From positions 1-64,000 of the forward strand of contig JAFXDD010000006.1 in assembly GCA_017516285.1 (NCBI GenBank): a DNA stretch of 64,000 nucleotides. Direction: 5' to 3'. Every line of letters begins with the position of its first letter. The first letter of the stretch is position 1. Shown here piece by piece: positions 2,167-20,149 of the stretch. The position numbers and the translations under genes were made by a program. The notes beneath the pieces were generated by a model. That model saw only the letters and a program-made list of their open reading frames with translations, made no database searches and was not told where the DNA came from. This stretch comes from Lachnospiraceae bacterium (lineage in GTDB: Bacteria > Bacillota_A > Clostridia > Lachnospirales > Lachnospiraceae).

Positions 2167-2229
2167 ACTTGACGTACGACAAGTAAGAAAAAATAAATAC
2201 TTGACATATGACAAGTGAGAGTATAAAAT
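2167..2229 (+). promoter_or_regulatory. Tandem palindromic operators and promoter for the HipA-like operon
   Basis: Two near-identical 18-bp sites, at 2167-2184 (ACTTGACGTACGACAAGT) and 2199-2216 (ACTTGACATATGACAAGT), have ACTTG/CAAGT arms and start 32 bases apart, close to three helical turns. The second site contains the -35 hexamer TTGACA (2201-2206), paired at 17 bp with TAAAAT (2224-2229). A repressor bound there would block the promoter directly. The predicted transcript starts only about 14 bases before ATG 2250. The rest of 2004-2166 is non-coding, with no other motif recognised. Confidence 0.75.
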
Positions 2230-2249
2230 CAAGGTGGAGGTGTAAGACT

Positions 2250-5336: not shown

Positions 5337-6356
5337 ATGAGTGGTGAGATAATTTTTTCAGATGCATTGGAAAAATTGAATGAGGAACTCCGGATTTTAA
5401 AGGCAAAGCTTGCTGAATTATTACAGGAGAAGGATGATCTGATTTATCATGTTTGTCCGGAACTTCGTGCCAAGTATGCTGCTGAAATTGGCGATTATCA
5501 AAATAGAGCAAATTATCAGGAATTGATGATTTTGGAATTAAAGCGTCGAATTGAAATTGCACGGGCGGCGCTAAATCGCGAGCAGAGTATTTCTGAAGAG
5601 GAAGTGGATAAACAAATCGAGAAGGAGTATCAGGAATTTCACCAAAAGGTGGATGAAGAGTACCAAAAATCCAAGAAATCCCAGGAAGAACAAGCGCAGA
5701 AGGAAGAAAAGCGTAAGTTTTATGAGGAACAGTGGAAAAATCAATACGGAAAGCGCAAGGAAGATGAAAACACAGAGAAGAACTCCGATACGAAGGATTC
5801 TGACGGGGAGAATTCTGATACGGAGAATACTTCGAGAAAGAGTAGTGGGGATGATCCGGAAGATATTGATACGAAACCGAAAGAAAAGCCTCTTCCGAAC
5901 GCAAAGGATCTGTATCGAAAGATAGTAAAAAAGTTGCATCCGGACATGAACCCTGATGTCACCGAGCATGAGTTGGAGCTTTTTCACAGAGCTGCAAAGG
6001 CCTATGAAGAGGGAGATATCATGACTCTTCAAGCAATATATGATGAAGTATATGGATTGGATACAAAGATGCTGTCTCAGGAAGAAAGTATGGAAACGTT
6101 AATTAGCCTCAGAGAGCAGTTGTTGGAACGAATCGCAAAAACAATTGAGGAGATTGAGGCCATAAAAGAAGAATTTCCGTACACAGAAAAAGCATTTTTG
6201 GATAATCCTGAGGCTGTGAAGGAAATGCAGGATGCGATTATTCGACTAATCCAAGAATATGAAAAAGAAATTATCCGATTAAACCAGATTTTGCAAGAAG
6301 TAAATCACGAAATGGAAGAATTACAGAAAAAGAAGAGGGATAGAATTTATGAATGA
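5337..6356 (+). CDS. Coiled-coil protein with internal J-domain
   Basis: The 339-residue protein starts with a coiled coil (1-150, very rich in E, K and Q), then a Ser/Asp/Thr-rich hinge (about 145-185), then a J-domain core near 190-240: LYRKIVKKLHPDMNPDVTEH carries the HPD tripeptide that stimulates Hsp70. A second coiled coil fills 250-339. There is no Gly/Phe region or zinc domain, so it is not DnaJ itself but a specialised co-chaperone that would recruit DnaK. GGAGGAG precedes ATG 5337. The stop overlaps the next start by 8 bases, so it is coupled to the HIRAN protein. Confidence 0.8.
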   Translation: MSGEIIFSDALEKLNEELRILKAKLAELLQEKDDLIYHVCPELRAKYAAEIGDYQNRANYQELMILELKRRIEIARAALNREQSISEEEVDKQIEKEYQEFHQKVDEEYQKSKKSQEEQAQKEEKRKFYEEQWKNQYGKRKEDENTEKNSDTKDSDGENSDTENTSRKSSGDDPEDIDTKPKEKPLPNAKDLYRKIVKKLHPDMNPDVTEHELELFHRAAKAYEEGDIMTLQAIYDEVYGLDTKMLSQEESMETLISLREQLLERIAKTIEEIEAIKEEFPYTEKAFLDNPEAVKEMQDAIIRLIQEYEKEIIRLNQILQEVNHEMEELQKKKRDRIYE

Positions 6357-6774
6357 GAAAAAGAAAGAATTATCTACAATAGCAAATGATGTCTTAGCGG
6401 TGAGCTTTCTCAAACAAAATGGGAATAGTATACAGAGTCCTTTTTCGAGAGATATATTTCTGATGAATACTATGATTAACGGGGCGATGCATGTGGACGA
6501 AATACATAAGAGAGCTGCAGAGTTGCACGAAGGGGATCGGGTGCAGTTGATTTTGGAACCCAAAAACAAATATGATGAAAAAGCAATTCTTGTGAAGAAT
6601 GAGAAGGGACATAAGCTGGGATATATACCCAGAATAAAAAATGAAGTGCTGTATCATTTGATGGATGCAGGTAAGTATCTGTTTGGCATCGTAAAGGAAG
6701 GGGATATCGGAGAAAATCTGGACCCGGAGGATCGGTGGATAGAGATTTATATTGATGTTTATATGGCGGATTGA
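6349..6774 (+). CDS. HIRAN-domain protein
   Basis: The protein is 141 residues. The core (about residues 40-125) contains LILEPKNKYDEKAILVKN, HKLGYIPR and LYHLMDAGKY, the strands typical of HIRAN domains, which in HLTF/Rad5 bind 3' ends of single-stranded DNA at stalled forks. Here the domain is alone, as is usual for bacterial stand-alone HIRAN proteins. The start overlaps the J-domain gene by 8 bases, so the two are co-translated. The pairing suggests a DNA-end or repair complex remodelled by Hsp70, which is inference. Confidence 0.8.
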   Translation: MNEKKKELSTIANDVLAVSFLKQNGNSIQSPFSRDIFLMNTMINGAMHVDEIHKRAAELHEGDRVQLILEPKNKYDEKAILVKNEKGHKLGYIPRIKNEVLYHLMDAGKYLFGIVKEGDIGENLDPEDRWIEIYIDVYMAD

Positions 6775-7056
6775 AAAGACAAGCAGGAAAGATAAAGAAT
6801 CGACAGAGAGTTCAGTGGTGGATTTGATGCCGATTTTTGGGGCTATTAGAGAACTATTAGCACGAGATTGCGAGAATTTGGCGGAGATGGGCGGAAAAGG
6901 TTGATTTTAACAAAAAAGTGTGATAAAAGTCAATGCGTTGTTTAAGGTGCACATAAATTATGCCAATTGAACATGCTATGTATTGATTATGTTCCGACTT
7001 GGGACTATAATGTATTTTGTAGAATTTTATCGATTTTTTAAAATGAGGAAATTATA
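6775..7056 (+). promoter_or_regulatory. Spacer with promoter for the DrmA/DrmB-type locus
   Basis: TTGATT (6983-6988) and TATAAT (7006-7011) are 17 bp apart and point at the HTH gene at 7057. Bases 6775-6980 hold no supported gene. This is the only clear promoter before the chain of genes ending at 17487. Confidence 0.65.
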
Positions 7057-7248
7057 ATGGGATATTTATCGATTAGTCAAATTACAGAAAAATGGGGGAT
7101 TTCACAAAGACGAATACGAACATTATGTGCTGAAGGAAGGATTCCAGGTGCCTTCAAGATGGGGGTGTATTGGTCTATTCCGGAAGATGCAGAAAAGCCA
7201 GAAGATAAGCGAATCAGAAGTGGACGCTATATTAAAACAAATGACTAA
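7057..7248 (+). CDS. Small MerR/excisionase-type HTH protein
   Basis: The protein has 63 residues: YLSISQITEKWGISQRRIRT is a winged-helix recognition region, followed by the basic wing CAEGRIPGAFKMG and YWSIPEDAEKP. This is the common small HTH protein that accompanies accessory operons and prophages in Clostridia. GAGGAAA precedes ATG 7057 and the gap to the helicase gene is 35 bases. It is likely the local regulator of the following operon (inference from position). It is too small to have an effector domain. Confidence 0.75.
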   Translation: MGYLSISQITEKWGISQRRIRTLCAEGRIPGAFKMGVYWSIPEDAEKPEDKRIRSGRYIKTND

Positions 7249-7283
7249 TTACACTTACGATAAATAATATTGGGGGAAAGATA

Positions 7284-9242
7284 ATGAAAATATTTCCAGA
7301 TAAATATGAAGAACTTGATATAGACAAATTTGATAAGCAATTAATGGCTATTGTTAAAAAGATATATAGAGATGATGAAGTTGCTACGTTTATGTTGAGT
7401 TGTAATCCTACAAAAACAAAAGAGGGCATAGTTAATATATTGATTTCAGCATCAGGTGTACTTTGCATAAAAGTATTGAGTGAGGTAACACAAGGTGAAC
7501 TTATGCAAAAACTTTTTGAGCGGCAATTGCAACAGAAGCAAGAATTACAAATGATTATTGATCGAATGAAATTACATAAAGTTCTTGTTGAAAGGGGAGA
7601 TGTGAAATACTCAATTAAGGTAATCTCTCTATTTCCACAATGCTCAAAACCCGAGTTGATTGATAATCCGGCCATGAAGAAATTTAATGACTTTGTAAAT
7701 GAAGAATGCTTCTTTATAGATTTCTTCAATACATCTATGAGAGATACAGCATTTATAGACCGGATGATGACTTATGCTGGGAAAAGCCAAATTACAGGGG
7801 AGGTTTTGCCTGATATTGTAAATAGACTTACTCCAGAGTATACGATTCCTCAGAAAAAAGCAGCGATGGATCCAAAGGTTGAATTTAAGCAGACAGGGAA
7901 TCTTATTGACCAAGATGTGTCCGAAGCGGATCGAGCAGCATTAGCATATTTGCTCGATGATAGTCAAATAAATTATATTAATAAGATTAAGAAGGGTGAT
8001 CAGCTGATTATTGCTTGTGCAGGAAGTGGCAAAAGTGTTATTTTGCTTTCAAAATGTTTTAAAGTAGCTAGTTTAAATCCGGATAAAAGGTTTTTAGTTA
8101 CAGGGTATAATCGAAATTTGGTTAGTTATTTTAAGTGGTTGATTGATTCAGCAGGTTTCTCGTCAGAAAATGTAGAATGTCTTACTTTTCATAAATTAGC
8201 AGTCACTCTTTTGAAACGCAATGGATTGCAAGTACCTACTGTTGCAGACAACGATTACACAGATGTTGTCAATAAATTAGCAATATGCATAGAAGAAGGG
8301 AAGATAAAGGACCGTTATTACGGGATATTCATTGATGAGGTGCAAATGTTTGAAACGGAATGGTATAAAATTTGCTATCGCCTATTAGAAAACAAAGAAT
8401 CAGATGAACACTTTTTTGTTATTTGTGGAGACAAATCGCAGAGTGTTAAAAAGTCTATAAAAAGTGGAAAGGCACCATGGCAGGGACACGGCGAACAATA
8501 TCCGAATTTTAGAGGCAAAAGTTTTCCGATAGAAGTAAATTATAGGAATTCAATTCAGATCAATAACTACATAAGAAATTTTACAGATTATGCGTTGAGA
8601 TATGCTGAATTATTTAATATTCAGATGAATCAGGATTCGGATATTTTTTTAAGAGGGAAGGCCATTAGAGAAGGTATAGACCTAAGAATTGTTAATGTAC
8701 AACATCCCACGTCAGAGGCTGAAGCAATCGCAATTCTTAATCAAGTAATAGACATACATGATAATTACAAGATTCCTTATGATTCTATAGCAGTAATATA
8801 TTTTAATAAACAATACAAATGGATGAAAAATTGGGGAGAAAAGCATTATGAACCAATTGAACGATTACGCGAATTATTTAGAGAAGCAAATATTCCATCT
8901 TGTATGTTGGTAAACACACAAGACGATTATGCGGTTTCATATTCAAATATATCAGGCGTACCCATTGTTTCAATGGAATCATCATTAGGATTAGATTTTA
9001 AAGCAGTTGTTTTGTGTGGTTTAAGACCATTGGGATATTATGATGGTACAAAAGACATAACACTGTTAATGGATAATAAGAAAATCCCTAATCAAGATTT
9101 GGCAGATGCTTTTTGTAAAAATATTAATATTGTATATATGTCATGTGCAAGAGCTAAAGATGTATTGAGGGTAGTATTGACAGAAAATGAGAATGAGTCG
9201 TTTTATGCTAAACTACTAATTAAAGCATATGAGGAGGAATAG
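7284..9242 (+). CDS. UvrD-like superfamily I helicase with extended N-terminus
   Basis: The 652-residue protein has SF1A helicase motifs: Walker A CAGSGKSV near residue 248, Walker B IFIDEVQMF near 346, motif III GDKSQSV near 383, motif IV-like NYRNS near 419, SMESSLGLDFKAVVL near 560 and the terminal YMSCARAKDVLRVV near 617. The first 200 residues are not motor and look like a divergent nuclease/NERD-type or sensor region, without a clear catalytic motif. Asp-Glu-Val-Gln replaces the usual DEAQ/DEXQ context only slightly, so ATPase activity is expected. It is followed after 2 bases by the solenoid gene, and so is part of one operon. Confidence 0.85.
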   Translation: MKIFPDKYEELDIDKFDKQLMAIVKKIYRDDEVATFMLSCNPTKTKEGIVNILISASGVLCIKVLSEVTQGELMQKLFERQLQQKQELQMIIDRMKLHKVLVERGDVKYSIKVISLFPQCSKPELIDNPAMKKFNDFVNEECFFIDFFNTSMRDTAFIDRMMTYAGKSQITGEVLPDIVNRLTPEYTIPQKKAAMDPKVEFKQTGNLIDQDVSEADRAALAYLLDDSQINYINKIKKGDQLIIACAGSGKSVILLSKCFKVASLNPDKRFLVTGYNRNLVSYFKWLIDSAGFSSENVECLTFHKLAVTLLKRNGLQVPTVADNDYTDVVNKLAICIEEGKIKDRYYGIFIDEVQMFETEWYKICYRLLENKESDEHFFVICGDKSQSVKKSIKSGKAPWQGHGEQYPNFRGKSFPIEVNYRNSIQINNYIRNFTDYALRYAELFNIQMNQDSDIFLRGKAIREGIDLRIVNVQHPTSEAEAIAILNQVIDIHDNYKIPYDSIAVIYFNKQYKWMKNWGEKHYEPIERLRELFREANIPSCMLVNTQDDYAVSYSNISGVPIVSMESSLGLDFKAVVLCGLRPLGYYDGTKDITLLMDNKKIPNQDLADAFCKNINIVYMSCARAKDVLRVVLTENENESFYAKLLIKAYEEE

Positions 9243-9244
9243 GC

Positions 9245-10228
9245 GTGAGATACAACGAAAATGACGGAGAAGAGATAAATGGTAAAATTGTTATTTCAAC
9301 GGAAATAGATTTAAATCCTGTATTTGAAATTAGTTGTGTTGTTGTTGGTAATATTAAGTCTCATATAATCAAAGCTAATTATGACTTAATTATACTTGGA
9401 GATGTTGAGGCGAACAGATTAGATGTGGCGGGAAATTTCACATGTATCGGTAATTGCAGTTGTGAGAGTGTTTCCGTTCAGGGAACTTGTTCTATTATAG
9501 GAAATCTTTCTAGTGAGGAAGGTTTTATCGGGGATGCACTGACTGTTAAAGAGTTGTGTATTGATACAATGGAGATTAAAGGGTCGTTATCATGTGTAAA
9601 CATGGAATGCAATGATGATGTAACTTGTACGGGAAATGTGCTGATTGCTGAAGGATTAACAGGGACGGGGGCTTTGTCAAGTAAGATGACGGTGTGTGGA
9701 GAATATTCATTGTTGGATAATACATCCGGAGTATTTATCGCGGATACTCTAGAAATGGAAAAGCCTACGATATTAAGCCCACAAGTAAAAAGGGATTCGA
9801 TAGACATAGAAGAGTGGAAAGTAAAAGCTAAGCGACAGTCTCCAGCGGTGTTTTATAGTGAATTGGCAAGGCTAGCAGAGCAACATGCGGAATATAAAAA
9901 AGAGTGCAATGCATTCCAAAAATTAAGGGTTGTTGAGGATGTTGTAAAGCTTCCGAGTATAAAAACATATGTAGAAATTATTGATATTTTGAATCGAAAT
10001 TATAAAATTATTAGTAGTTCAAAATTATTCCAAAAAGTAAAGACTTGTTTTGAAAGTTTTACATATGAAGATATTAATCATTCAAAAATGACAAAAATAT
10101 CCCAGAAAGATTTTGCTCAAATGTTACATATTATCACTTTTAGACCAAAACTGTTTGACGATAGTATACGAGAGTTAATTCTTGAAACGTTGTGTATGTA
10201 TGTAGGAATGGATTTGGAAGTTTTTTAA
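9245..10228 (+). CDS. Bactofilin-like beta-solenoid protein
   Basis: The 327-residue protein starts at GTG 9245 behind GGAGGAA and only 2 bases after the helicase stop. Residues about 25-170 are short repeating strands with glycine turns (VVVGNI, IILGDV, VAGNF, IIGNL, IKGSL, CTGNV), the pattern of right-handed beta-helices such as bactofilins (polymer-forming domain). The C-terminal 140 residues are helical with no family recognised. Bactofilins polymerise; an equivalent in a helicase operon could form a scaffold or filament, but that is speculation. The region is rich in cysteine, with no zinc-finger spacing. Confidence 0.6.
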   Translation: MRYNENDGEEINGKIVISTEIDLNPVFEISCVVVGNIKSHIIKANYDLIILGDVEANRLDVAGNFTCIGNCSCESVSVQGTCSIIGNLSSEEGFIGDALTVKELCIDTMEIKGSLSCVNMECNDDVTCTGNVLIAEGLTGTGALSSKMTVCGEYSLLDNTSGVFIADTLEMEKPTILSPQVKRDSIDIEEWKVKAKRQSPAVFYSELARLAEQHAEYKKECNAFQKLRVVEDVVKLPSIKTYVEIIDILNRNYKIISSSKLFQKVKTCFESFTYEDINHSKMTKISQKDFAQMLHIITFRPKLFDDSIRELILETLCMYVGMDLEVF

Positions 10229-10462
10229 GATGGACATCAGGAGATAGTAGCTGTAGAGAAGATAGAACAAGCTAAAAAGGACCAACCTACTTTGGAGATT
10301 AAAGTAGGAGACACGGTACTTGTTGTTCGAGGAGTATGGACGGATACGGTAGGCGAGATTATCAGCATTAACGAGCTCAAGAAGACGATAACAATGAATG
10401 TTATGTTATTTGGTCGGAATACGTCAGTGGAGATTTCGTTTTCAGAAATTAAGAAATTATAG
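10229..10462 (+). pseudogene. Orphan NusG-type KOW domain fragment
   Basis: Directly after the TAA at 10226-10228, and in the same frame, the DNA codes for a NusG C-terminal domain: VGDTVLVVRGVWTDTVGEI, then INELKKTI, MLFGRNTSVEISFSEIKKL, stop at 10460-10462. The pattern G-D-x-V ... FGR-x-(T/S)-x-V-E is diagnostic of NusG/LoaP KOW domains. There is no ATG, GTG or TTG near its beginning, although CAGGAGAT at 10238-10245 resembles a ribosome site, and no NGN domain precedes it. It is either a remnant of a specialised NusG or could be made by readthrough of the solenoid stop codon. Confidence 0.6.
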
Positions 10463-10496
10463 ATAACAAGTATTATAGTAGACGAAAGGAAAAAGA

Positions 10497-13400
10497 ATGA
10501 ATACTCAACAAGCACATAGTATATTTGCAGAACAAATCGCTCAGGAACTAATAGGAGAGTTAACTGGTGAAAATGTTGATTATCTTGTGGGGAAGGTACC
10601 AGAGGAAAAATTTATTGTAGGTCAGCTTTCACCAAAAGCGGATAGTTCTGAGTTTTTAACATCTAGAACTATAATTAATGCTGTCGGAATTAATTTTAAT
10701 ATTGACAAAAGTGCGGTTAATGGCTGTGAATTAGTGGTACATTTATGCGGGAATCTTTTTTATAGGACGTTTCCTACATATGATGAGCAGTGCCAAGCTA
10801 TAGTTTTGGAATACAATAAAAAGCTTGGTAAGGAATATTCTTCATTGAAACAATTTTTTGAAGATGAAGAGATTTATAAGCAGTTTTGGGACGAGAAGAA
10901 AGGTGTTCCTAATCCTAACTATAGGGTTTCAATATTGAATACTTATAGGAAAATATCTTTAGAGGATTATGGTATTACGGTTTCATTAAAAGTATCAGAT
11001 GTTTATGATGATAGTCTAGCAATAGGTGTTGTGGATGAGACGAGTAAAATTAATGAGCAACTGCGGTCTACAATAAATAACATAATAAAGAATTTTGTGA
11101 TTAATCAAGATGATTATTATGCTTATGAGATAAAAGAAAAAATGTCTATATATGATATGAAATCGCGAGAAACATGGGAGAGCTTTTTGGCTAATTCAAA
11201 AAAAGAGACAAAACTTCTTCCGAATTGGGCGCTGGCAGTTAATTGCGAAATAAGAGAAATTGATGGACTTATTAATATTGATATTAAATTTGTAAATAAA
11301 GCAGAACAACTTGAATCTGAACTGAAGCAGAAACGACAGAAGGAGCATACAAGAATTTCTACAATCTTTAATGCCAGACTAAAAGTGGAACTGTTGAATG
11401 CGACATATATACCGATAAAACTAGAGCATTTTAAGGACGATTATAAGTACGATAAGACGCAGCCGGCGATTGGATTTAATTGCAATATTGATTTTGAAGA
11501 TTTGCATTCAACACAAGATTATCTTGCAACCACAAATGTGCCTATATTTAGACAATACAGATTAAAGACAAATGATAATATTCCTGCACGTTTTTCTGAT
11601 TTAGTAGATGCTCCAGTTAAGACACTGAATAAAATTTTGGAAGGAATGAAATCGGTACTGGCAGAGTGGAATGAATACTATCAATCCAAGCAGGATGAGT
11701 ATACAGAAAATGCACTTGAAAATATGGAAAGAGAGATAAGTGACTTTGAACTAGAAATAGACCGATTTGCCATAGGTATCAACTTAATTAATGATTATTC
11801 GATAGTTCGAGATGCATTTGTGAAAATGAATCAGGCTTTTATGAATTCACCCAAAAGTTATGGTGGGTGGAGACTGTTTCAGATTGTATATATTGTGTCT
11901 GTAATATTAGATATTGTTACAACCGAGAATAAAATAGTCCTTCCTGAAAGCATTAGAGGAAAGTCTACATTTAATTATGTAGATATTATTTATTTTCCTA
12001 CTGGGGGCGGTAAAACAGAGGCATTTTTAGGAACAGTTGTATTTACGCTCTTTTTTGACCGTCTTAGAGGAAAAGATAAAGGTGTTTCAGCAATTGTGAG
12101 ATATCCATTGCGTCTATTAGCGGCACAACAAGCTTCGCGTGTGGCCAACATACTTGCTCAAGCGGAATTGATAAGGAGAAGTTCGCCGGAAATGATGCAA
12201 ACTACAGAGTTTGCATTAGGATATTTATGTGGAGAGGGAAATACACCAAATAAAATAGATGCGTTTGAAATGAAAGAAATCGAAGAGATTTCTCAGGAAG
12301 AACGAGATAGACGTTTCTTGGTTGTAGAAAAATGTCCGTTTTGTGGAAGTGATTTGCATGTATATAGAGATAGTGAAAAACTGCGCTTAATGCATGCATG
12401 TGGAAACGAGGAATGTGGAGAGAGTATCCTGCCTATTTATATTGTTGACGCAGAAATTTATCGTTATTTACCATCGGTAATAATTAGTACGGTAGATAAA
12501 ATGGCGGCTATTGGTTTGAACCGTAATTTTCCTGCTATCTATAGAGGGGCAACATGTAAATGCAAAAAACATGGATTCTGCGGAGTGAATGAATGCATAG
12601 TAGGAAATAAGAAAAATAAGCAGTGTGATGAGGAGACTTTTGAACCCGTGTCGTTCTATGACCCGGTACCGACATTATTAGTTCAGGATGAATTGCATTT
12701 GATTAGAGAATCATTAGGAACATATGATGCACATTACGAGACATTTACAGATTATTATTGTAGGTATCATACATCATCGCATAGAGGAATGAAAATAATT
12801 GGTGCTACTGCAACAATTTCTAATTATGAAGACCAAGTTGAAGAATTGTTTATGAAGAATCCAAGAAGATTTCCTTGTGAATCAATAAACTTGAAAAAAC
12901 ATTTTTATTATTATATAGACGAGACAGAATTGAATCGTATTATATTTGGATATGCACCGTTTGGTAGGTCTGTAGCGTATGGCGTCGTTTATTCGATGAA
13001 GGATATTAGAACTGTAATATGGAAGTATGTTTCTGATCCAGAATTGGTGAAAAAAATAGCGGGACTAGAAACATTGTCGTTTGAAGAAGCAAAAAAATTG
13101 GCTCAGGATTATTGGATGCTTATTGAATACAATAATGTGAAATTAGATAGCCAGAACATCATCGGTGCTTTGAACAACCCTGTGAATATTGAATTGGCAG
13201 ATGAGAAGGTACGTACATATGTATCGGCAAAGATGACTGGTGACGATACATTTCAGGAAGTTAGAAAGACATTAGCACAGATTGAAAATGCAGAGGATAT
13301 TGTTGATGATTTGGAATTTAATATGATTGCTGCAACAAGTATGATCTCCCATGGTGTTGATGCTGACCGATTCAATGAAATTTTATTTTTTGGTATGCCT

Positions 13401-13952
13401 GGTAGTACGGCCGAGTATATTCAGGCATATTCTAGAGCTGGGCGCAAGTATCCGGGAATAGTTGTAGACATTATTAGACCGTCAAGACCTACTGACCAAA
13501 GTTATTTGAGATATTTTTATAAGTTTCATGAGTACAAGGATATCTTGATTGATCCAGTACCAGTAAATAGATGGGCGAATAAATCTATAGATGTTACGTT
13601 ACCAGGTATCTTTTCGGGAATGATGCTGGCAATATATTTACCAAAAAGTTCGAGACGTATATATATGGCAAGCGAATTAAAAAAGGATATATTGGAGGGG
13701 CTAATCGACCCTGAAGAGGTAAAGAGAGAACTTTATCTAATCTATGGCTGTGTTCGTCCAGATGGGTCAGAGTACAATAAAGGCAAAATTTTTAAACGTA
13801 AGGTCGATGAGGCTGTTGATACGATTTTTGAAAGGATGAATGAAAAAACTATTACAGACGAATATATAACAGCCGGATTAAATGCAATAGGCTTTCATGT
13901 AATGAATAGTTTGCGTGACACAGAAAAACAACTATTGGTTGAAGTGAACTAA
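10497..13952 (+). CDS. DrmA-like superfamily II helicase
   Basis: The 1151-residue protein has a long N-terminal part (about 1-480), Walker A FPTGGGKTEAFLG near residue 500, RYPLRLLAAQQA (motif Ia), zinc-type cysteines CPFCGSD...CGNEECG (612-640) and a second Cys cluster (686-705), Walker B-like LLVQDELHLI near 729, IGATATISN near 768 and motif VI QAYSRAGRKYPG near 974. This layout, and the neighbour with DUF1998, match DrmA of DISARM phage-defence systems, an ATPase that with DrmB senses and translocates on foreign DNA. AAAGGA lies 8 bases before ATG 10497; DrmB follows after 13 bases. DEXH is replaced by DELH. Confidence 0.8.
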   Translation: MNTQQAHSIFAEQIAQELIGELTGENVDYLVGKVPEEKFIVGQLSPKADSSEFLTSRTIINAVGINFNIDKSAVNGCELVVHLCGNLFYRTFPTYDEQCQAIVLEYNKKLGKEYSSLKQFFEDEEIYKQFWDEKKGVPNPNYRVSILNTYRKISLEDYGITVSLKVSDVYDDSLAIGVVDETSKINEQLRSTINNIIKNFVINQDDYYAYEIKEKMSIYDMKSRETWESFLANSKKETKLLPNWALAVNCEIREIDGLINIDIKFVNKAEQLESELKQKRQKEHTRISTIFNARLKVELLNATYIPIKLEHFKDDYKYDKTQPAIGFNCNIDFEDLHSTQDYLATTNVPIFRQYRLKTNDNIPARFSDLVDAPVKTLNKILEGMKSVLAEWNEYYQSKQDEYTENALENMEREISDFELEIDRFAIGINLINDYSIVRDAFVKMNQAFMNSPKSYGGWRLFQIVYIVSVILDIVTTENKIVLPESIRGKSTFNYVDIIYFPTGGGKTEAFLGTVVFTLFFDRLRGKDKGVSAIVRYPLRLLAAQQASRVANILAQAELIRRSSPEMMQTTEFALGYLCGEGNTPNKIDAFEMKEIEEISQEERDRRFLVVEKCPFCGSDLHVYRDSEKLRLMHACGNEECGESILPIYIVDAEIYRYLPSVIISTVDKMAAIGLNRNFPAIYRGATCKCKKHGFCGVNECIVGNKKNKQCDEETFEPVSFYDPVPTLLVQDELHLIRESLGTYDAHYETFTDYYCRYHTSSHRGMKIIGATATISNYEDQVEELFMKNPRRFPCESINLKKHFYYYIDETELNRIIFGYAPFGRSVAYGVVYSMKDIRTVIWKYVSDPELVKKIAGLETLSFEEAKKLAQDYWMLIEYNNVKLDSQNIIGALNNPVNIELADEKVRTYVSAKMTGDDTFQEVRKTLAQIENAEDIVDDLEFNMIAATSMISHGVDADRFNEILFFGMPGSTAEYIQAYSRAGRKYPGIVVDIIRPSRPTDQSYLRYFYKFHEYKDILIDPVPVNRWANKSIDVTLPGIFSGMMLAIYLPKSSRRIYMASELKKDILEGLIDPEEVKRELYLIYGCVRPDGSEYNKGKIFKRKVDEAVDTIFERMNEKTITDEYITAGLNAIGFHVMNSLRDTEKQLLVEVN

Positions 13953-13965
13953 AGAGGGTACTAGA

Positions 13966-15879
13966 ATGGCAAGTAAAAAAGAAAATCAAATGTTTAGAAG
14001 TACATCACAGGCATTATACAAATATGTACCATTGCGATGGATTGATTTCTATTTCTCACAGTCAAGGAGGGGAATTACTGCTTTTGTTGACAGATGGAGT
14101 AGCCTACCATTAGAAGATATTAATAAAAAGAGGTTACTGAGAAGGGTTAGCGAGGCAGTAGAAAGTTATCGTAGTCAAAATGGAGCCTTATTTGGCGGTG
14201 GTGAAAATGCATGTCTAAAAAATATTGGAAGCACCATAAATGAAGAAACATATACTGTATTAACACCAAGAGTTAGCGAGTTTGACCGAGCAATTGCAGC
14301 AAGTGTAAGCCCGAAGGTGTTTTTTTGTGAAAAGTGCAGAAGGGTTCAAAGATTTAAAAGGGATTCGCACTATTCGTATATCATTAAACAGAACTGTAAA
14401 CATTGTGGCGGAAATTTAGTCCAACTAAGAGATATATATTATTGCAAATGTGGTTGGGCTGGTGATGTTGCAATTGGCAGTTGTGATATACACAAAGATG
14501 CACCGGTCCGAATTGATATTAGAAAGCACACGTACGAGTGTACTGTGTGTCATAGGTCAACTGCAATTTTTAGACTTTGTCCAGAATGTAATACAAAAAT
14601 TAGACCAAATAACGTTTTGGATTCGGCGCAATCGTTTGTGAAAAGTTTGAGTGTTATTGATTTGCTTGATCCAAAGATGGATGATTTTCTTACTCAAGAG
14701 GAAGAAGGAGCAGTAAGCATAGTTGCAAACTATCTTGAATTAATCAGTGAGTCAGAATTCAAAAAACTTGTTAAGTATGGGCGAAGCAGTCAAAAAGAAA
14801 TAAAAAATGAGTCATACGAGTCCCTTTTAAAAACATTTTTAGATCAAGGGATGCCACAAGAATATGCTGAAATGGCTGCAAAGGCTGCTTGTAAAGTCGG
14901 CGAGAGTGACCCTATTGAACAGGCGATCAATATGGCTAATGCATATATAGATGACATTTCAAAAATGAACGCATATGCAGAACTTTTATTGGAATACAAT
15001 GCTGTAAAGTATGGGGAAGACATTGTTGATTTAGATACAGCCATTGAGAGAGCAAAGGAACTTAACGCCTTTGTAAATGTCGAGAAGTTAAAAGCAAAAA
15101 TTGAACGTAGAGGTTTTACTTCCATGCAGGCATGCGATAGAATTCCTTTTTTGCAATGCTCATATGGATTTACAAGGGAGTATGTAGATAGTGCTTCAGC
15201 ACCAACAAATAATATGCAACCAGTTGTATTACATGGATTCCCAGATGAAAATGCAGAAAAGAAAAATGTATATGCCACGAAACTTCAAACGGAAGGAGTA
15301 CTATTCGAAATAGATAGAGTTAAGATTTTGAAATGGTTGCTCAAGAATGGTGTTATTAAGGAAACAGATTTACCTGTTAATATGGATGATGAAATTGCAG
15401 TGAAGGCATGGTTTATCAATCACATTAATCTTGGAGCGATACAACCATTTTCTTTGCTGAGTGCTGAAGAAGATGCAATTACATATTATGTTTACAGATT
15501 AGTTCATACAATTTCTCATACATTGATCATAGCAGCGGCAGAAGTGTGCGGGTTAGATAAAAATTCTTTGTCAGAATATATCTTTCCGAACGTGCCAGCA
15601 ATATTTATTTATTGTCAGAACTCACAAGGGTTTAATATGGGAGCATTGTTTAGTGTATTTGAAATGTATTTGGATAAGTGGCTAGATAACTCATATCAAG
15701 CAGCAAAGGAATGTGTTTTTGATCCTGTGTGTCGAGAGGTAGATGCTGCTTGCACAGGCTGTATCTTTACAAATGAAATATCATGTCAGCATTTTAATCA
15801 TGATCTTGATAGAAATTTGTTGATAGGAAAAATGGATAAAAAGACGGAAATACGATTTTATGGTTTCTGGGAGGACTAG
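13966..15879 (+). CDS. DrmB-like zinc protein (DUF1998)
   Basis: The 637-residue protein has an N-terminal domain with WIDFYFSQSRRGITAF, then several zinc knuckles (CEKCRR..., CKHCGG, CKCGW, CTVCHRST, CPECN; about residues 120-215), and a C-terminal DUF1998-type domain with LVHTISHTLIIAAAEVCGL (about 505-530), and a terminal cysteine cluster CTGCIF...SCQHFNHDLDRNLL (about 598-620). This is the build of DrmB, the partner of the DrmA helicase in DISARM. It starts 13 bases after the DrmA stop and ends 2 bases before the NERD gene, so translational coupling is likely. No catalytic motif is expected; DrmB stabilises DNA binding by DrmA. Confidence 0.8.
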   Translation: MASKKENQMFRSTSQALYKYVPLRWIDFYFSQSRRGITAFVDRWSSLPLEDINKKRLLRRVSEAVESYRSQNGALFGGGENACLKNIGSTINEETYTVLTPRVSEFDRAIAASVSPKVFFCEKCRRVQRFKRDSHYSYIIKQNCKHCGGNLVQLRDIYYCKCGWAGDVAIGSCDIHKDAPVRIDIRKHTYECTVCHRSTAIFRLCPECNTKIRPNNVLDSAQSFVKSLSVIDLLDPKMDDFLTQEEEGAVSIVANYLELISESEFKKLVKYGRSSQKEIKNESYESLLKTFLDQGMPQEYAEMAAKAACKVGESDPIEQAINMANAYIDDISKMNAYAELLLEYNAVKYGEDIVDLDTAIERAKELNAFVNVEKLKAKIERRGFTSMQACDRIPFLQCSYGFTREYVDSASAPTNNMQPVVLHGFPDENAEKKNVYATKLQTEGVLFEIDRVKILKWLLKNGVIKETDLPVNMDDEIAVKAWFINHINLGAIQPFSLLSAEEDAITYYVYRLVHTISHTLIIAAAEVCGLDKNSLSEYIFPNVPAIFIYCQNSQGFNMGALFSVFEMYLDKWLDNSYQAAKECVFDPVCREVDAACTGCIFTNEISCQHFNHDLDRNLLIGKMDKKTEIRFYGFWED

Positions 15880-15881
15880 TT

Positions 15882-16382
15882 ATGGCTATTATGCACCCAA
15901 AAAATCTAAATAATTTTGATGCTACTAAATCGGAACGTGCAATGTTTGAAGCACTTGAGCAACAATTAGATAATTCTTATCATGTCTTTTATTCAGTAAC
16001 GTGGTATACGGAAGAAAAAGGAGTACGTGTAAATAGTGAATGCGATTTCCTTGTTTTTAATTCGAATTATGGTTTTTTAACTATAGAAGTAAAAGGTGGA
16101 ACAAAAATAGAAGTTGAAGAAGGAGAATGGACACTTTATGCGTATAATAAGCATGGAGAGATTGAAAGCAGAAAATTAACCAAAAGTCCATATAAGCAGG
16201 CAGAAAGTAGCATGCATTATTTTAGGAAATACTATAAGAAAGAGACTTTAACGAATTTTAGAGGAACTTTTGGTATGGCAGTTGCATTTCCATTTTTCTA
16301 TGTTGACGTAGATATGGAAAATGACGCTCCAAAAGAACTTACAATTCAGCTTAAGGATATGAAAAATCTGGAAAGTAATTAG
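15882..16382 (+). CDS. NERD nuclease-related domain, upstream half of a split NERD-helicase
   Basis: The 166 residues contain a NERD domain: ATKSERAMFEALEQQL, NSECDFLVFNSNYGFLTIEVKGG (the D ... E-V-K catalytic strand of PD-(D/E)XK-like nucleases), and SPYKQAESSMHYFRK. The frame ends KDMKNLESN-stop, just where family members continue into a helicase. The helicase half follows in the +1 frame from 16363 (see next entry). GGGAGG precedes ATG 15882. As it stands it would yield a free NERD protein; an intact gene of about 535 residues is the likely ancestral form. Confidence 0.75.
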   Translation: MAIMHPKNLNNFDATKSERAMFEALEQQLDNSYHVFYSVTWYTEEKGVRVNSECDFLVFNSNYGFLTIEVKGGTKIEVEEGEWTLYAYNKHGEIESRKLTKSPYKQAESSMHYFRKYYKKETLTNFRGTFGMAVAFPFFYVDVDMENDAPKELTIQLKDMKNLESN

Positions 16383-16386
16383 AGAG

Positions 16387-17487
16387 TTGTTTCATTATTG
16401 GAGCGGAAAAAATGGCGGAAGCTTTTTGTCGAGTGAGCAGGCGCAAAAATTTATTAATTTAGTCAATAGAAGAATCGCGTTATCGATTGCTGCAGGAGCA
16501 CTAATACCAATTACGAGCAAAAAATTGGAGAATATAAATATAGTTCAGGATTCAATAATAACTTTGTTGGAAAACTATAAAAGAGTGAAAATTGTCGGTG
16601 GTGCAGGAACTGGAAAAACATGGATTGCCATGAAAAAAATAATTCAACAGAATTACTCCGGAAAAAAATGTCTGTATACATGTTACAGCAAATCGTTAGT
16701 AACTTTTGTTGCAGGGATATTACCTCCTGAAATAGAATGTATAGATATAGAAACCTTGTTTAGGAATAGTCTGAAAGAGAAAGATGCCAAAGGCGCGAAT
16801 GAAAATCAAGGAGATAGATTATATTTTGATTTGTTGCAAGATGCTAGCCTTGAAAAATATGATTGCATTATGATAGATGAAGCACAAGATTTTTGCTTGG
16901 ATTGGGCACTGAGTATAAACCAATTTTTAGTTGATGATGGAATTTTTTATGTGTTTTATGATGAAAATCAGAATATCTATTCTAGGGATTTCGAGGATGG
17001 ATTTATGATAAATACAGAGCCATATTTGTTGACTAATAACATTCGGAATACAAGAAACATCCATACTTGGGTAAAAGAAAAAACGTCGGTTGGAGAGCAG
17101 GTTATATCTAATGATATTGTAGGATGTGATCCTGAGGTTCATACAGTAAAGGATCTTAGTGGTGCAAAAATCAGATTGAATGAAATCTTAAATAAACTGG
17201 TTATAGAGGAATGTGTAGCACCAGATTCGATAGCGGTATTGGGACCAAGTGGGTTGGATGAAGATGTAGAAATTGGAAGTTTTATTCTTTCTTCTCGCAA
17301 CAGAGCGGCAAATAATGTGATTCAGTATCAAAGTGTGGCTGACTTTAAGGGGCTGGAATCAGATGTAATTATATATTTGAATAAGTGGCCTAGTGGCGTT
17401 CCTAAGAATAAGGCATACTATGACATGCTATATATTGCGGGGACCAGAGCGAAGTATTATTTGTACATAATAGAATGGAGTTGTTAG
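16387..17487 (+). CDS. UvrD-like helicase half of the split NERD-helicase
   Basis: The frame opens after a stop at 16360-16362 and reads KIWKVIRELFHYWSG..., so family-like sequence starts before TTG 16387. Motifs: Walker A GGAGTGKTWIA near residue 70, Walker B IMIDEAQDF near 162, motif III YDENQNIYSR near 190, NNIRNTRNIH near 217, QSVADFKGLESDVIIY near 317 and YIAGTRAKYYLYI at the end. Skipping one A in CTGGAAAGTAATTAGAG joins it to the NERD half (LEVIRELFHYW). So a one-base insertion, a programmed +1 shift or a sequencing error separates nuclease and motor. There is no ribosome site before TTG 16387, so independent translation is doubtful. Confidence 0.7.
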   Translation: MFHYWSGKNGGSFLSSEQAQKFINLVNRRIALSIAAGALIPITSKKLENINIVQDSIITLLENYKRVKIVGGAGTGKTWIAMKKIIQQNYSGKKCLYTCYSKSLVTFVAGILPPEIECIDIETLFRNSLKEKDAKGANENQGDRLYFDLLQDASLEKYDCIMIDEAQDFCLDWALSINQFLVDDGIFYVFYDENQNIYSRDFEDGFMINTEPYLLTNNIRNTRNIHTWVKEKTSVGEQVISNDIVGCDPEVHTVKDLSGAKIRLNEILNKLVIEECVAPDSIAVLGPSGLDEDVEIGSFILSSRNRAANNVIQYQSVADFKGLESDVIIYLNKWPSGVPKNKAYYDMLYIAGTRAKYYLYIIEWSC

Positions 17488-17558: not shown

Positions 17559-19319
17559 TTATAGATTTAAGGATTTTAGCTTTTGCAATATTTCAGAATT
17601 GTCATCAGCTTTATCATATAGTTTGTTAATAAAGTCGATTCCTACATATTTTACAAAAGCAAAAGAGAAGCGGGATGTAGATTTTATCTGTAAAAGATAA
17701 TTGAGCAATCGGTCTAATACAGCAGGAAATTGATTGTTGCAATAGTCAATAATAACTTCCTTGTGGAATCTACATTCATGATTGTCAAAATAATCAAATA
17801 ACTTAAATAATTCGCTTACGGACATATAAAACAGTAACAATTTTACAATGGTAGGATTACTTGCGTTTAATATTAAGTCTTTCGTAAACTTGTTTTTGTG
17901 AATAATAGATTGAAATTCATATAATTCAGAAGCCGATAAACTTTTATATAATGAAATCCATTCGTTAACAATTTTTTGATTGTATTGATATTGTAAAAAT
18001 CTGTTTGTATTCGCTTCTTCTGATAGAGAGGCGATTATTTTATATTCACCGCGTAAACTGATTATATTTTCTGGCATGTCTAAAATCATCATGTATTCTT
18101 CAACATTTTTGCCAAAAGCGGTGTAAAAGAAACTAGCACTTGTTCCTACTTTGCCTTGGGTAGGAATTAAGATAACTTGTATTGCGCGCAAGTATTTTGC
18201 GTTCCATTCTTTACTAATATACCCTCTTTCTTTACTATCAAGTGGAATATATCTCATTGGAAAGGAGAAAATGCTTATCTTTTCTTCTGTATCGGCTTTT
18301 TGTGAGTTGATTTCCTGTGCAAGAGCCACATTTAATTGTAATCTTTCATACAAGTCTTGTGGCGTATCTGCTGCATAAGAATGACCTTTTCCTGAAAATG
18401 CATCTGCATTATATAATACATAGTTTGATAAGGTATTAATATTGTGATGAGCACATGTGCGTATTGCTTTAACATATACTTCTTTGTCTTCAATATGATC
18501 AAATGCAATTCGAGCGGGTTTAATAGCTACTTGAGATAATAATGCAGCTTTTGCATCAGTTAGTAAGTAAGCGTCTAATCCTTGGTTGAAATCAATATAT
18601 CGTTTATGTGGTTTTTTCGTTTTGGGATTAATGTAAACTGCATTTTTACCGAAACCGAGTTCGATTAACTCGTTTATAATCTCTTCAAAATTGCAAGATT
18701 TTAGTACGTTATTATCCATCAATAACAAATCCTTTTTAGGAGATGTAGAAGCTGCATCAATTTTTCGGATTTGTTCTTTTATGGAGATAAATGGAATATA
18801 GGTTGGCTCAAGTGTTTTAACGGCACAAAAGCCACAATTCATGCCACATCCGCGTGTACTATACATGAAATAAGCATTTTCGTAGGGATAGTGGTAATAA
18901 CTTGCTATATCATCTAGGATTGTATAGTCGGGTGTAGTAGAGTCAATTGTATCGTCACCCGGATAACCAAGTTTGCTAGGCTCATTTAGTAATCCGGTCA
19001 CTGGTCGTATGCCAGTTGCTTTTTCATATTCATCGGGCATTAATGTAGATGCGATTCCGCCAACAACGATTTTATTGATTGGAACAAGTGTTTTTGCATA
19101 TTCAATCATCTCAATAGAACGTTTCCATTCGAAAGTGAATAAAGTTGTTACATATACCTTGTCCCATGTGGTTATATCTGTAAGACCCTCGCGTATAGGT
19201 CCTTTGGAAAAAAAGACTTTATCATGCAATACGTGTTTGTGAAAAGTAGCAATTTTCATCAGTCCTAAAGGTGGATATTTGTTTTTATATGCTGGCTCAA
19301 GTAGTAATATGTTTGCCAT
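17559..19319 (-). CDS. Radical SAM protein with B12-binding-like N-terminus
   Basis: The 586-residue protein starts MANILLLEPAYKNKYPPLGL, the entry strand of a B12-binding-type Rossmann domain, then the iron-sulfur motif STRGCGMNCGFCAVK (C-x3-C-x2-C) near residue 165, and MDNNVLK as a following radical SAM strand. Residues about 330-586 are an extra domain I do not recognise. A DxHxxG cobalamin motif is not evident, so cobalamin binding is doubtful. ATG at 19319 is preceded by AAGGAG at 7 bases; a longer start at 19346 has none. It runs towards the helicase operon and shares its terminator. The substrate is unknown. Confidence 0.75.
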   Translation of the reverse strand: MANILLLEPAYKNKYPPLGLMKIATFHKHVLHDKVFFSKGPIREGLTDITTWDKVYVTTLFTFEWKRSIEMIEYAKTLVPINKIVVGGIASTLMPDEYEKATGIRPVTGLLNEPSKLGYPGDDTIDSTTPDYTILDDIASYYHYPYENAYFMYSTRGCGMNCGFCAVKTLEPTYIPFISIKEQIRKIDAASTSPKKDLLLMDNNVLKSCNFEEIINELIELGFGKNAVYINPKTKKPHKRYIDFNQGLDAYLLTDAKAALLSQVAIKPARIAFDHIEDKEVYVKAIRTCAHHNINTLSNYVLYNADAFSGKGHSYAADTPQDLYERLQLNVALAQEINSQKADTEEKISIFSFPMRYIPLDSKERGYISKEWNAKYLRAIQVILIPTQGKVGTSASFFYTAFGKNVEEYMMILDMPENIISLRGEYKIIASLSEEANTNRFLQYQYNQKIVNEWISLYKSLSASELYEFQSIIHKNKFTKDLILNASNPTIVKLLLFYMSVSELFKLFDYFDNHECRFHKEVIIDYCNNQFPAVLDRLLNYLLQIKSTSRFSFAFVKYVGIDFINKLYDKADDNSEILQKLKSLNL

Positions 19320-19555: not shown

Positions 19556-20149
19556 ATGAATACAGACAAAACATTAATTTACTATGAGAAGAATGCACAA
19601 GCATTTGTAGCAGGAACTGTAGCAGTTGATTTTTCGAAAAATCAAAATAAGTTTTTAGAAAAAATGCATAAGAATGCCATCATCCTTGACTTCGGCTGCG
19701 GTTCCGGTCGTGACACCAAATATTTCCTCGATCATGGCTATATTGTAGAAGCCATCGACGGCTCCGAGGAACTCTGCGAGTTTGCTAGTAACCATACCGG
19801 TATAGAAGTAAAGCACATGCTTTTCCAAGACCTAAAGGAAGTCAATAAATACGATGCCATCTGGGCCTGTTCATCCATCCTGCATCTTCCATACGCAGAA
19901 CTTATAGATGTGATGAAGAAGATGGTAATTGCTTTAAAAGACAACGGTCTAATCTACACTTCCTTCAAGTACGGAGCTTTTGAAGGTATGCGTAACGGTA
20001 GATACTTCATTGATATGACAGAGGACAGTTTGAAAAAATTATTACAGGATGTAAAAGGACTTGAGGTAGAGGAAATTTGGATTACATCAGATGTACGTCC
20101 GGGACGAGGTGAGGAGAAATGGTTGAATCTTTTTCTGCGAAAGAAATAG
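19556..20149 (+). CDS. Class I SAM-dependent methyltransferase
   Basis: The 197-residue protein has SAM motif I ILDFGCGSGRDT near residue 43, acidic motif II VEAIDGS near 63, and IWACSSILHLP (motif IV region) near 102. There is no NPPY/DPPY, so it is not a typical N6-adenine or N4-cytosine DNA methylase; the profile is of small-molecule or protein methylases. Its last 31 bases overlap the helicase gene at 20119, so the two proteins are made together. It may modify the helicase, a metabolite or RNA; nothing in the sequence decides this. Confidence 0.8.
   Translation: MNTDKTLIYYEKNAQAFVAGTVAVDFSKNQNKFLEKMHKNAIILDFGCGSGRDTKYFLDHGYIVEAIDGSEELCEFASNHTGIEVKHMLFQDLKEVNKYDAIWACSSILHLPYAELIDVMKKMVIALKDNGLIYTSFKYGAFEGMRNGRYFIDMTEDSLKKLLQDVKGLEVEEIWITSDVRPGRGEEKWLNLFLRKK

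What the first reader, a model, noticed from the sequence alone, without database searches (positions are those of the whole stretch)
7057..17487. DrmA/DrmB-centred operon with atypical partners: candidate DISARM-like defence variant
Seen: seven consecutive same-strand open frames with gaps of 2-35 bases, apart from the KOW and frameshift breaks. They are an HTH protein, a UvrD-type helicase, a beta-solenoid protein, a KOW remnant, a DrmA-like helicase, a DrmB-like DUF1998 zinc protein and a NERD-helicase. Known: DrmA and DrmB form the core of DISARM, normally with DrmC (phospholipase D) and a DNA methylase (class 1 DrmMI or class 2 DrmMII). Here no methylase or PLD motif is seen. Inference: an alternative wiring where two SF1 helicases and a NERD nuclease supply the effector and self-recognition does not need methylation.
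Basis: partly seen in the sequence, partly recalled or inferred. Interest (0 to 1): 0.85.

Follow-up and report, generated by a model that had tools for sequence, protein, structure and literature searches.

The report
DISARM-like operon with nuclease-helicase, radical-SAM neighbour
A bacterial genome holds a relative of the DISARM phage-defence machine that lacks DISARM's usual nuclease and DNA methylase and uses other partners, and its sister systems suggest that an unusual radical-chemistry enzyme may stand where the methylase normally is.

Summary
Window 7057-17487 carries an HTH gene, a UvrD-like helicase, a beta-solenoid (bactofilin-like) protein, a short KOW-like frame, DrmA (PADLOC 3e-165), DrmB (3e-55) and a NERD nuclease-helicase split by a frameshift. 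The DISARM-variant guess is largely right: of 31 loci with UvrD before DrmA and the gene after DrmB visible, that gene is the NERD-helicase in 30 and the PLD nuclease DrmC in none. These DrmA form one clade (SH-aLRT 99). In the window's branch this family follows the NERD-helicase, usually with two Hsp90-like genes flanking the operon; in the sister branch a Dam-type methylase stands there or just upstream. Of the 31, rSAM is in 13, Dam nearby in 12, both in none. The rSAM-Hsp90 pair also joins HerA/NurA-like and ParB/SNF2 operons, so it is portable. I infer a DrmAB-helicase-nuclease defence system in which rSAM may replace methylation as self-mark; that role is unproven. The window copy lacks Hsp90, has an inverted rSAM of another subclade and a broken NERD-helicase frame: possibly decayed.

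The parts
7057..7248 (+). HTH_17 (excisionase-type) small DNA-binding protein, 63 aa; likely regulator
   Evidence: HTH_17 24.3 bits, below cut-off 27; a homologue (69% identical) stands in the same place before a DrmAB operon of the other branch, L019
7284..9242 (+). UvrD-like SF1 helicase, 652 aa, with an N-terminal domain that lacks nuclease motifs
   Evidence: PF00580 32.7 bits, PADLOC NERD+UvrD C3a187 1.6e-27; before DrmA in 35 loci including the window, in 13 of them with only the solenoid gene between; no D/ExK motif in the N-terminal domain of the 12 sequences printed
9245..10228 (+). Bactofilin-like beta-solenoid protein with a helical C-terminal half, 327 aa; candidate scaffold
   Evidence: Pfam bactofilin 26.5 bits, cut-off 27.9; AlphaFold2 model: beta strands at residues 9-165, pLDDT about 90 at 20-150, overall 74.8; present in 13 loci whose DrmA form one clade, support 99
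10229..10462 (+). KOW/SH3-like short frame after the solenoid stop (possible TTG start at 10292, 56 aa)
   Evidence: Open frame in sequence. By eye SH3/KOW-like segments lie at the N-terminus of the long solenoid proteins of L001, L002 and L009 and inside that of L026; DUF3553 in L001 at 20.0 bits, cut-off 20.3
10497..13952 (+). DrmA-like SF2 (YprA-family) helicase, 1151 aa, helicase motifs intact
   Evidence: PADLOC DrmA 3e-165; 7s9v_A 1.2e-49; PTGGGKT, DELH, ATAT, QAYSRAGR motifs
13966..15879 (+). DrmB-like protein with DUF1998/MZB zinc-binding domain, 637 aa
   Evidence: PADLOC DrmB 3.1e-55; MZB PF09369 25.6 bits, cut-off 24.2; 7s9v_B 1.1e-6
15882..16382 (+). NERD nuclease domain, first piece of the frameshifted NERD-helicase
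   Evidence: PF08378 42.4 bits; D...EVK motif in the piece, as in the 10 relatives printed
16387..17487 (+). SF1 helicase, second piece of the frameshifted NERD-helicase
   Evidence: PADLOC RTasNERD-Hel 8.8e-36; closest relative is one 535-aa protein; the family is next after DrmB in 30 of 31 loci
17559..19319 (-). B12-domain radical-SAM protein, convergent with the operon, 71 bases after it; family found right after the NERD-helicase in 12 relatives

Best explanation
This is a member of a distinct clade of DISARM-like systems, here called DrmAB-NERD for description. Shown: DrmA and DrmB are encoded next to a UvrD-like helicase, a beta-solenoid protein (in this branch) and a NERD nuclease-helicase, and this set is conserved. 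Inferred from the solved DISARM complex: DrmAB loads on single-stranded or 5'-overhang DNA of an invading genome and translocates. Inferred: the two SF1 proteins are recruited as a motor and a motor-nuclease that unwind and cut that DNA, in place of DrmC; the solenoid protein holds the parts together. Inferred, weaker: self-DNA is told apart by a mark that a Dam methylase makes in one branch and the B12-domain radical-SAM protein, with Hsp90-like ATPases, makes or controls in the window's branch. The window's own copy may be inactive or a partial island: it has a broken NERD-helicase frame, no Hsp90 genes and an inverted radical-SAM gene.
For: Profiles and solved-structure matches. Conserved gene set: UvrD before DrmA in 35 loci, window included (22 directly, 13 with the solenoid gene between); of 31 with the gene after DrmB visible, NERD-helicase in 30, and no DrmC-type PLD or C5 methylase label anywhere in the 35 loci; as a control, 41 of 58 other loci with DrmA and DrmB have the PLD gene within two frames after DrmB. 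Of the 31: radical SAM 13, Dam nearby 12, both 0, neither 6. DrmA tree of 98 rows: all UvrD-bearing rows in one clade, SH-aLRT 99, with one further row whose upstream side is cut off by its contig end; the window's branch 99. Full eight-gene operon on one strand in L100, DrmA 62% identical. NERD active-site motif. Patchy presence, 5 of 397 genomes of the family of G002 (the genome of L021, titled Lachnospiraceae) at E<=1e-100, and one copy on an IMG/VR contig (L080), as expected of defence genes. DISARM mechanism: passages of PMC9142583.
Against: No phage-challenge data exist for any member in what I read. NCBIfam scores fall far below the DISARM cut-offs (DrmA 361.9 against 950; DrmB 83 against 240). 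The radical-SAM substrate is unknown; its closest folds act on small molecules, proteins or tRNA (substrates partly recalled). The rSAM/Dam alternation follows two sister clades, so it is close to one evolutionary event, not many, and in 3 of the 12 Dam loci the gene is upstream, not in the same place. The window's radical SAM lies in a subclade of about 586 aa apart from that of its DrmA sister L100, and none of 13 clusters of that type shares a listed contig length with the 22 closest DrmA clusters, while 8 of the 22 share one with a NERD-helicase cluster. Six of 31 loci show neither rSAM nor a nearby Dam gene; in two of these (L011, L023) the contig ends, and in L012 a longer Dam-family frame lies about 4.5 kb further on.
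Confidence: 0.6

Rival explanations
1. The radical-SAM protein is not a marking enzyme but the effector or signal maker: it turns a nucleotide or other metabolite into an antiviral compound when Hsp90-like sensor ATPases and DrmAB detect invasion (viperin-like logic, recalled).
For: The best Foldseek match by E-value is OxsB, which acts on 2'-deoxyadenosine phosphates (recalled). The rSAM-Hsp90 pair is portable between three operon types, as effectors and sensors are. In 6 of 31 loci the core stands without rSAM or nearby Dam.
Against: The DrmAB operons already carry a NERD nuclease that could be the effector. Sister operons carry a DNA methylase, mostly at the same place. VIA-align ranks MgmA (a methylase of a protein glutamine) and AprD4 (a diol dehydratase) higher than OxsB.
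Confidence: 0.25
2. The radical-SAM gene of the window is an unrelated neighbour in a defence island; the operon proper ends at the NERD-helicase and needs no mark, relying on DNA structure (5' overhangs) alone.
For: Opposite strand; separate subclade of about 586 aa; no shared contig lengths with the closest DrmA clusters; six of 31 loci with neither rSAM nor nearby Dam. Solved DISARM selects by DNA structure (PMC9142583 passages).
Against: The same family follows the NERD-helicase on the same strand in 11 of the 12 other loci of this branch (the twelfth contig, L011, ends there) and in L006; chance placement of the same family 71 bases from this operon is unlikely.
Confidence: 0.3
3. A decayed classical DISARM locus that has lost DrmC and its methylase.
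For: DrmA and DrmB profile matches; frameshift in the NERD-helicase.
Against: The alternative partners are conserved in 30 of 31 loci and the DrmA forms its own clade; the PLD gene follows DrmB in 41 of 58 other loci but in none of the clade.
Confidence: 0.03
4. A DNA repair or recombination operon (MrfAB/RecBCD-like housekeeping), not defence.
For: YprA-family helicases include repair enzymes (PMC12458937 passages); SF1 helicases with nucleases are typical of end resection (recalled).
Against: Very patchy distribution, a copy on a viral contig (L080), several phyla in one shallow clade, and nesting among DISARM DrmA proteins.
Confidence: 0.1

Closest known systems
DISARM (class 1 and class 2; Serratia DrmAB 7s9v/7s9w)
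   Same: Homologous DrmA helicase and separate DrmB with DUF1998/MZB zinc domain, adjacent and in the same order; DrmA clade groups with archaeal DISARM DrmA whose loci carry the PLD gene
   Different: No DrmC and no C5-type methylase, no DrmMI, DrmD or DrmE hit among the ten proteins scanned; UvrD-like and NERD-helicase partners, beta-solenoid protein, radical SAM or Dam instead; below NCBIfam DISARM cut-offs
TALON (Bell et al. 2025, PMC12458937)
   Same: YprA-family helicase with a NERD-type PD-(D/E)xK nuclease
   Different: TALON has an ARMADA-like YprA, TPR-CSD and TBP genes and is largely confined to Chloroflexota (section 5); here DISARM-like DrmA plus separate DrmB, NERD fused to a helicase
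ARMADA type II
   Same: YprA-family helicase with an additional UvrD-family helicase
   Different: ARMADA has BrxHII and PglX partners and the OB-CON-DUF1998 region is typically fused to the helicase (PMC12458937 passages); here DrmB is a separate gene
GHKL/paraMORC restriction operons (Iyer et al. 2008, PMC2292703)
   Same: GHKL-family ATPases beside superfamily II helicases and endonucleases, as in the relatives of the window
   Different: There frequently with DNA methylases (passages); here with radical SAM, and the ATPase matches Hsp90 (PRK14083, 61 bits for one of the two copies); the window copy itself has no such gene
RTasNERD-Hel (PADLOC, named for reverse-transcriptase systems) and NERD+UvrD candidates
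   Same: The NERD-helicase is of this family (7.6e-20 and 8.8e-36 for the two pieces)
   Different: Here part of a DrmAB operon; no reverse transcriptase among the proteins scanned

Membership tests
DISARM | DrmA-family helicase | tested here: met
   PADLOC 3e-165, 7s9v_A 1.2e-49, nested in the DrmA tree (midpoint root); but NCBIfam DrmAS 361.9 bits against cut-off 950
DISARM | DrmB-family DUF1998 protein | tested here: met
   PADLOC 3.1e-55, MZB above its cut-off, 7s9v_B 1.1e-6; NCBIfam DrmB_fam 83 against 240
DISARM | DrmC phospholipase D nuclease | tested here: not met
   No PLD label in the window or in any of the 35 loci of the clade; tblastn of one DrmC-type PLD over the window negative. 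DrmC is reported as non-essential in DISARM (PMC9142583 passage)
DISARM | DNA methylase DrmMI or DrmMII in the operon | tested here: not met
   No methylase domain among the operon proteins 7057-17487; tblastn of one DrmMII-type C5 methylase and of a Dam methylase over the window negative; a DrmMI (PglX-like) query was not run over the rest of the window
DISARM | Anti-phage activity | not testable with these tools
   Needs phage challenge
ARMADA | YprA helicase with fused OB-CON-DUF1998 region | tested here: not met
   The MZB domain is found in the separate DrmB protein, not in DrmA
[quoted passage not shown]
   One SNF2-type query found nothing in the window; PglX not searched by itself
TALON | NERD nuclease with ARMADA-like YprA | tested here: inconclusive
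   NERD present; DrmA lies among DISARM-like DrmA, but no TALON sequence was placed in the tree
TALON | TPR-CSD and TBP genes | not tested
   None turned up among the window proteins scanned with Pfam, but not every frame was scanned
Radical SAM superfamily (17559-19319) | CxxxCxxC iron-sulphur motif | tested here: met
   Residues 157-164; the three cysteines invariant in 37 and in 17 aligned sequences; Pfam Radical_SAM 24.7 bits, below its cut-off 29.5
B12-domain radical SAM enzymes | N-terminal Rossmann-type B12-binding-like domain before the barrel | tested here: met
NERD nucleases | D...ExK catalytic residues | tested here: met
   D...IEVK in the window piece and the same motif in the 10 relatives printed from an alignment of 27
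GHKL-containing restriction operons | GHKL ATPase gene in the operon | tested here: not met
   No Hsp90-like homologue in the 64-kb window by tblastn at E<=0.01, though 11 of the 12 other loci of the branch have one or two

The most novel reading that the evidence does not exclude
A radical-SAM/Hsp90-like pair is a portable self-marking module of bacterial defence: a B12-type radical enzyme installs a mark on host DNA other than a nitrogen- or C5-methyl group, and at least three different DNA-attack machines (DrmAB-NERD, HerA/NurA-like, ParB/SNF2) have been fitted with it. Apart from a radical-SAM-like reaction claimed, and disputed, for DndC (PMC10853773 passage), I know of no restriction-like defence whose self-mark is made by radical chemistry.
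Probability: 0.22. Interest if true: 0.92.

Novelty: new variant of a known kind. Interest (0 to 1): 0.72.

Why it matters
It shows that the DrmAB core is a chassis that can stand with other nucleases and other candidate self-recognition parts, and gives a defined eight-gene operon to test. If the radical-SAM/Hsp90 pair marks DNA or makes an antiviral compound, it would add a new chemistry to bacterial immunity; mass spectrometry of host DNA and nucleotides would help decide between these. It also gives search handles (UvrD-DrmA-DrmB-NERD; rSAM next to Hsp90-like) for systems such as this one, whose DrmA and DrmB score below the current NCBIfam DISARM cut-offs.

Tried and rejected
No DrmA match in 50,697 phage records; 85 plasmid records match, all under 60% identity, the best listed ones mostly haloarchaeal. 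No tRNA and no Rfam family at gathering score in 1-26000. No solved structure resembles the radical SAM by sequence. The solenoid model has no PDB match at E<=0.001. Homology between the UvrD N-terminal domain and NERD was not shown: isolated N-terminal domains gave 4% probability; the full proteins gave 99.4%, which I put down mainly to the helicase part. The methylation-sensing valine 1296 of Serratia DrmA could not be placed: the alignment ends at 1191 of the chain. Attempts to find the window's own species failed: no genome is held, best DNA match of a flanking gene in 397 genomes is 67%, no hit in 3 genomes of the genus of G308, and no radical SAM of the 586-aa type among the two hits in 392 genomes of the order. 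Promoter and terminator scans: a promoter-like site at 6983-7011 before the HTH gene, in a region with 6 such sites against 2.6 expected; no terminator-like site between the convergent genes. Classical decayed DISARM and housekeeping repair were considered and set aside (see rivals).

Absence from print rests on the paper searches in the held library; supplementary files could not be read, and a figure legend of PMC12458937 says that its DISARM-like clade holds many uncharacterized classes, so these DrmA may sit in its tree unnamed. From papers I saw: PMC12458937 abstract, outline, passages and section 5; PMC9142583, PMC2292703, PMC8011034, PMC10853773 and PMC10952713 passages only; all others only as search listings.

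Recalled, from no call: that OxsB acts on deoxyadenosine phosphates, viperin logic, that MiaB and RimO modify tRNA and a ribosomal protein (their names are), that DUF4368 is typical of large serine recombinases. Read by eye from sequence: HerA-like, NurA-like, ParB-like and SH3/KOW-like labels. Support for these: PADLOC gives the HerA-like protein mad8 at 6e-12 and HerA at 3e-3 and the NurA-like one nothing; Pfam ParB_N 24.9 bits (cut-off 26.3) for one ParB-like protein of L129, and PADLOC PD-Lambda-5_A/PDC-M38A for both; the ParB-like genes of L147, L148 and L151 are inferred from gene length and order only.

Full report
What is in the window. Searches confirm the seven same-strand frames at the stated coordinates. 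Profile searches give HTH_17 (weak, 24.3 bits), a UvrD-like helicase, a bactofilin-like solenoid protein (26.5 bits, just below cut-off), DrmA (PADLOC 3e-165), DrmB (3.1e-55; MZB above cut-off), NERD (42.4 bits) and an SF1 helicase of PADLOC's RTasNERD-Hel family. The solved DISARM complex is matched by both core proteins. The NERD and helicase frames are one gene broken by a frameshift: the closest relative, 95% identical over the helicase part, is a single 535-aa protein. DrmA motifs are intact and the NERD active-site motif is present.

Conservation. The UvrD-like gene stands before DrmA in 35 loci, window included: directly in 22, with only the solenoid gene between in 13. In 31 of these the gene after DrmB is visible (L015, L020, L034 and L041 are cut and left out): NERD-helicase in 30 (not L008). 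No PLD or C5-methylase label occurs in any of the 35. Of the 31, radical SAM occurs in 13; a Dam methylase in the operon neighbourhood in 12 (right after the NERD-helicase in 9, upstream in L046, L102 and L103); both in 0; neither in 6 (L008, L010, L011, L012, L014, L023). The contigs of L011 and L023 end right after the NERD-helicase, and in L012 a 604-aa Dam-family frame lies about 4.5 kb further on and is not counted. As a positive control, 41 of 58 other loci with DrmA and DrmB carry the PLD gene within two frames after DrmB. Record titles include Lachnospiraceae, Gemmiger, Phascolarctobacterium, Desulfovibrio, a Bacteroidetes bin, Tenericutes bins, a Spirochaetaceae bin and an alphaproteobacterial bin; many are metagenome bins, so single assignments may be wrong.

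Tree. Of 98 DrmA rows, all UvrD-bearing rows fall in one clade (SH-aLRT 99; 36 rows, one of them, L017, cut at its contig end so that its upstream neighbour cannot be seen). It groups with archaeal DrmA whose loci carry the PLD gene. The window's branch (13 rows, those with the solenoid gene) has support 99; the Dam-bearing rows lie in a clade of 20 rows (100) together with rows without a seen Dam gene. The root is midpoint only, the tree was made with the quick method, and the tool warned of long branches among the distant rows.

The window's branch in full. L100, the closest locus read (DrmA 62% identical), has on one strand: Hsp90-like, UvrD, solenoid, DrmA, DrmB, NERD-helicase, radical SAM, Hsp90-like. 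In the 13 loci of the branch (window included) radical SAM is present in 12 (the contig of L011 ends), an Hsp90-like gene upstream in 11 (not L011, not the window) and downstream in 9. L006, outside the branch, has radical SAM without solenoid or Hsp90 genes. The Hsp90-like proteins match HATPase_c_3 and HSP90 family PRK14083 (61 bits for one copy of L100, 32.5 for the other, both below that model's cut-off 455).

A portable pair. Outside DrmAB the radical-SAM/Hsp90-like pair stands beside HerA-like and NurA-like genes (L133, L136-L138, L140, L141, L153, L157; L135 and L139 show part of the HerA-like gene near a contig end) and beside ParB-like plus SNF2 genes (L129, L144, L147, L148, L150, L151). 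Of the 14 best of 45 viral loci (L144-L157; the 31 weaker ones were not annotated) 9 have an Hsp90-like neighbour, one of the nine, L145, being the same contig as the DrmAB locus L080. Of 11 non-DrmAB loci fetched from genomes 10 have one (not L134); L137 and L138 are near copies, and three further hit genomes (G295, G366, G504) were not fetched. In the radical-SAM tree the ParB/SNF2 copy L144 is sister to the DrmAB copy L100 (100/99), and L129 nests among DrmAB-linked or unplaced sequences, so the cassette seems to have moved between operon types; the tool warned that several distant rows have long branches. In L149 a DndB-like gene overlaps a radical-SAM gene, and DndB-like genes also follow the Dam gene in 5 loci of the other branch; this is a hint, no more, that radical SAM and Dam fill one slot.

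Mechanism. The solved DISARM core is held shut by a trigger loop and opens on 5'-overhang DNA, and is held back by methylation; DrmC appears non-essential (passages of PMC9142583). I therefore think DrmAB is the sensor-translocase here and the NERD-helicase the cutter. Both are inferences from homology and motifs. That radical SAM makes the self-mark is the boldest step and rests on position, on never being found with Dam, and on portability; the alternation follows two sister clades and so counts as few events. Rivals are given in their field.

The window copy. It has no Hsp90-like gene in 64 kb, an inverted radical SAM from a subclade of about 586 aa apart from that of its DrmA sister, and a broken NERD-helicase. 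Cross-checking listed longest-contig lengths, 8 of the 22 closest DrmA clusters share a length with one of the 31 closest NERD-helicase clusters, one of them (P0012) also with a 681-aa type radical SAM, and none of 13 clusters of the 586-aa type shares one with these DrmA (only the longest contig of each cluster is listed, so this is weak). I give about 0.3 to the view that this copy's radical SAM is merely a neighbour.

Novelty. The papers I could search do not describe this operon or the pair. Bell et al. 2025 mention many uncharacterized DISARM-like classes, and GHKL ATPases in restriction operons are known (PMC2292703). Hence: new variant of a known kind, with a possibly new module.

Noticed in passing
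window 19556-22599 +: A small class I methyltransferase overlapping an SF2 (ResIII) helicase; homologues (63% and 59% identical) lie together near a Dam-type DrmAB operon in L101, so this looks like a second recurring defence pair.
   Followed up: partly
window 6349-6774 +: HIRAN-domain protein (53.8 bits) 282 bases upstream of the operon, with a weak DnaJ-like protein before it.
   Followed up: no
window 58-528 +: C-terminal piece of a protein with DUF4368 (90.5 bits), which I recall as typical of large serine recombinases; the defence region may be an integrated element.
   Followed up: no
window 2208-3864 +: Two overlapping genes: a weak HipA_C-like protein (18.2 bits, below cut-off) and a protein with HTH_17 at its end; possibly a toxin-antitoxin-like pair.
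   Followed up: no
L133, L136-L138, L140, L141, L153, L157: Four-gene operon NurA-like, HerA-like, Hsp90-like, radical SAM, with no methylase gene noticed in it; may be a defence system of its own.
   Followed up: partly
L129, L144, L147, L148, L150, L151: Operon of two ParB-like genes around an SNF2 helicase with the radical-SAM/Hsp90-like pair (inverted in L150).
   Followed up: partly
L149 7645-11170: Two-gene operon of a DndB-like protein and a short radical SAM beside a gene that looks like an integrase, in a viral contig.
   Followed up: no
   Followed up: no
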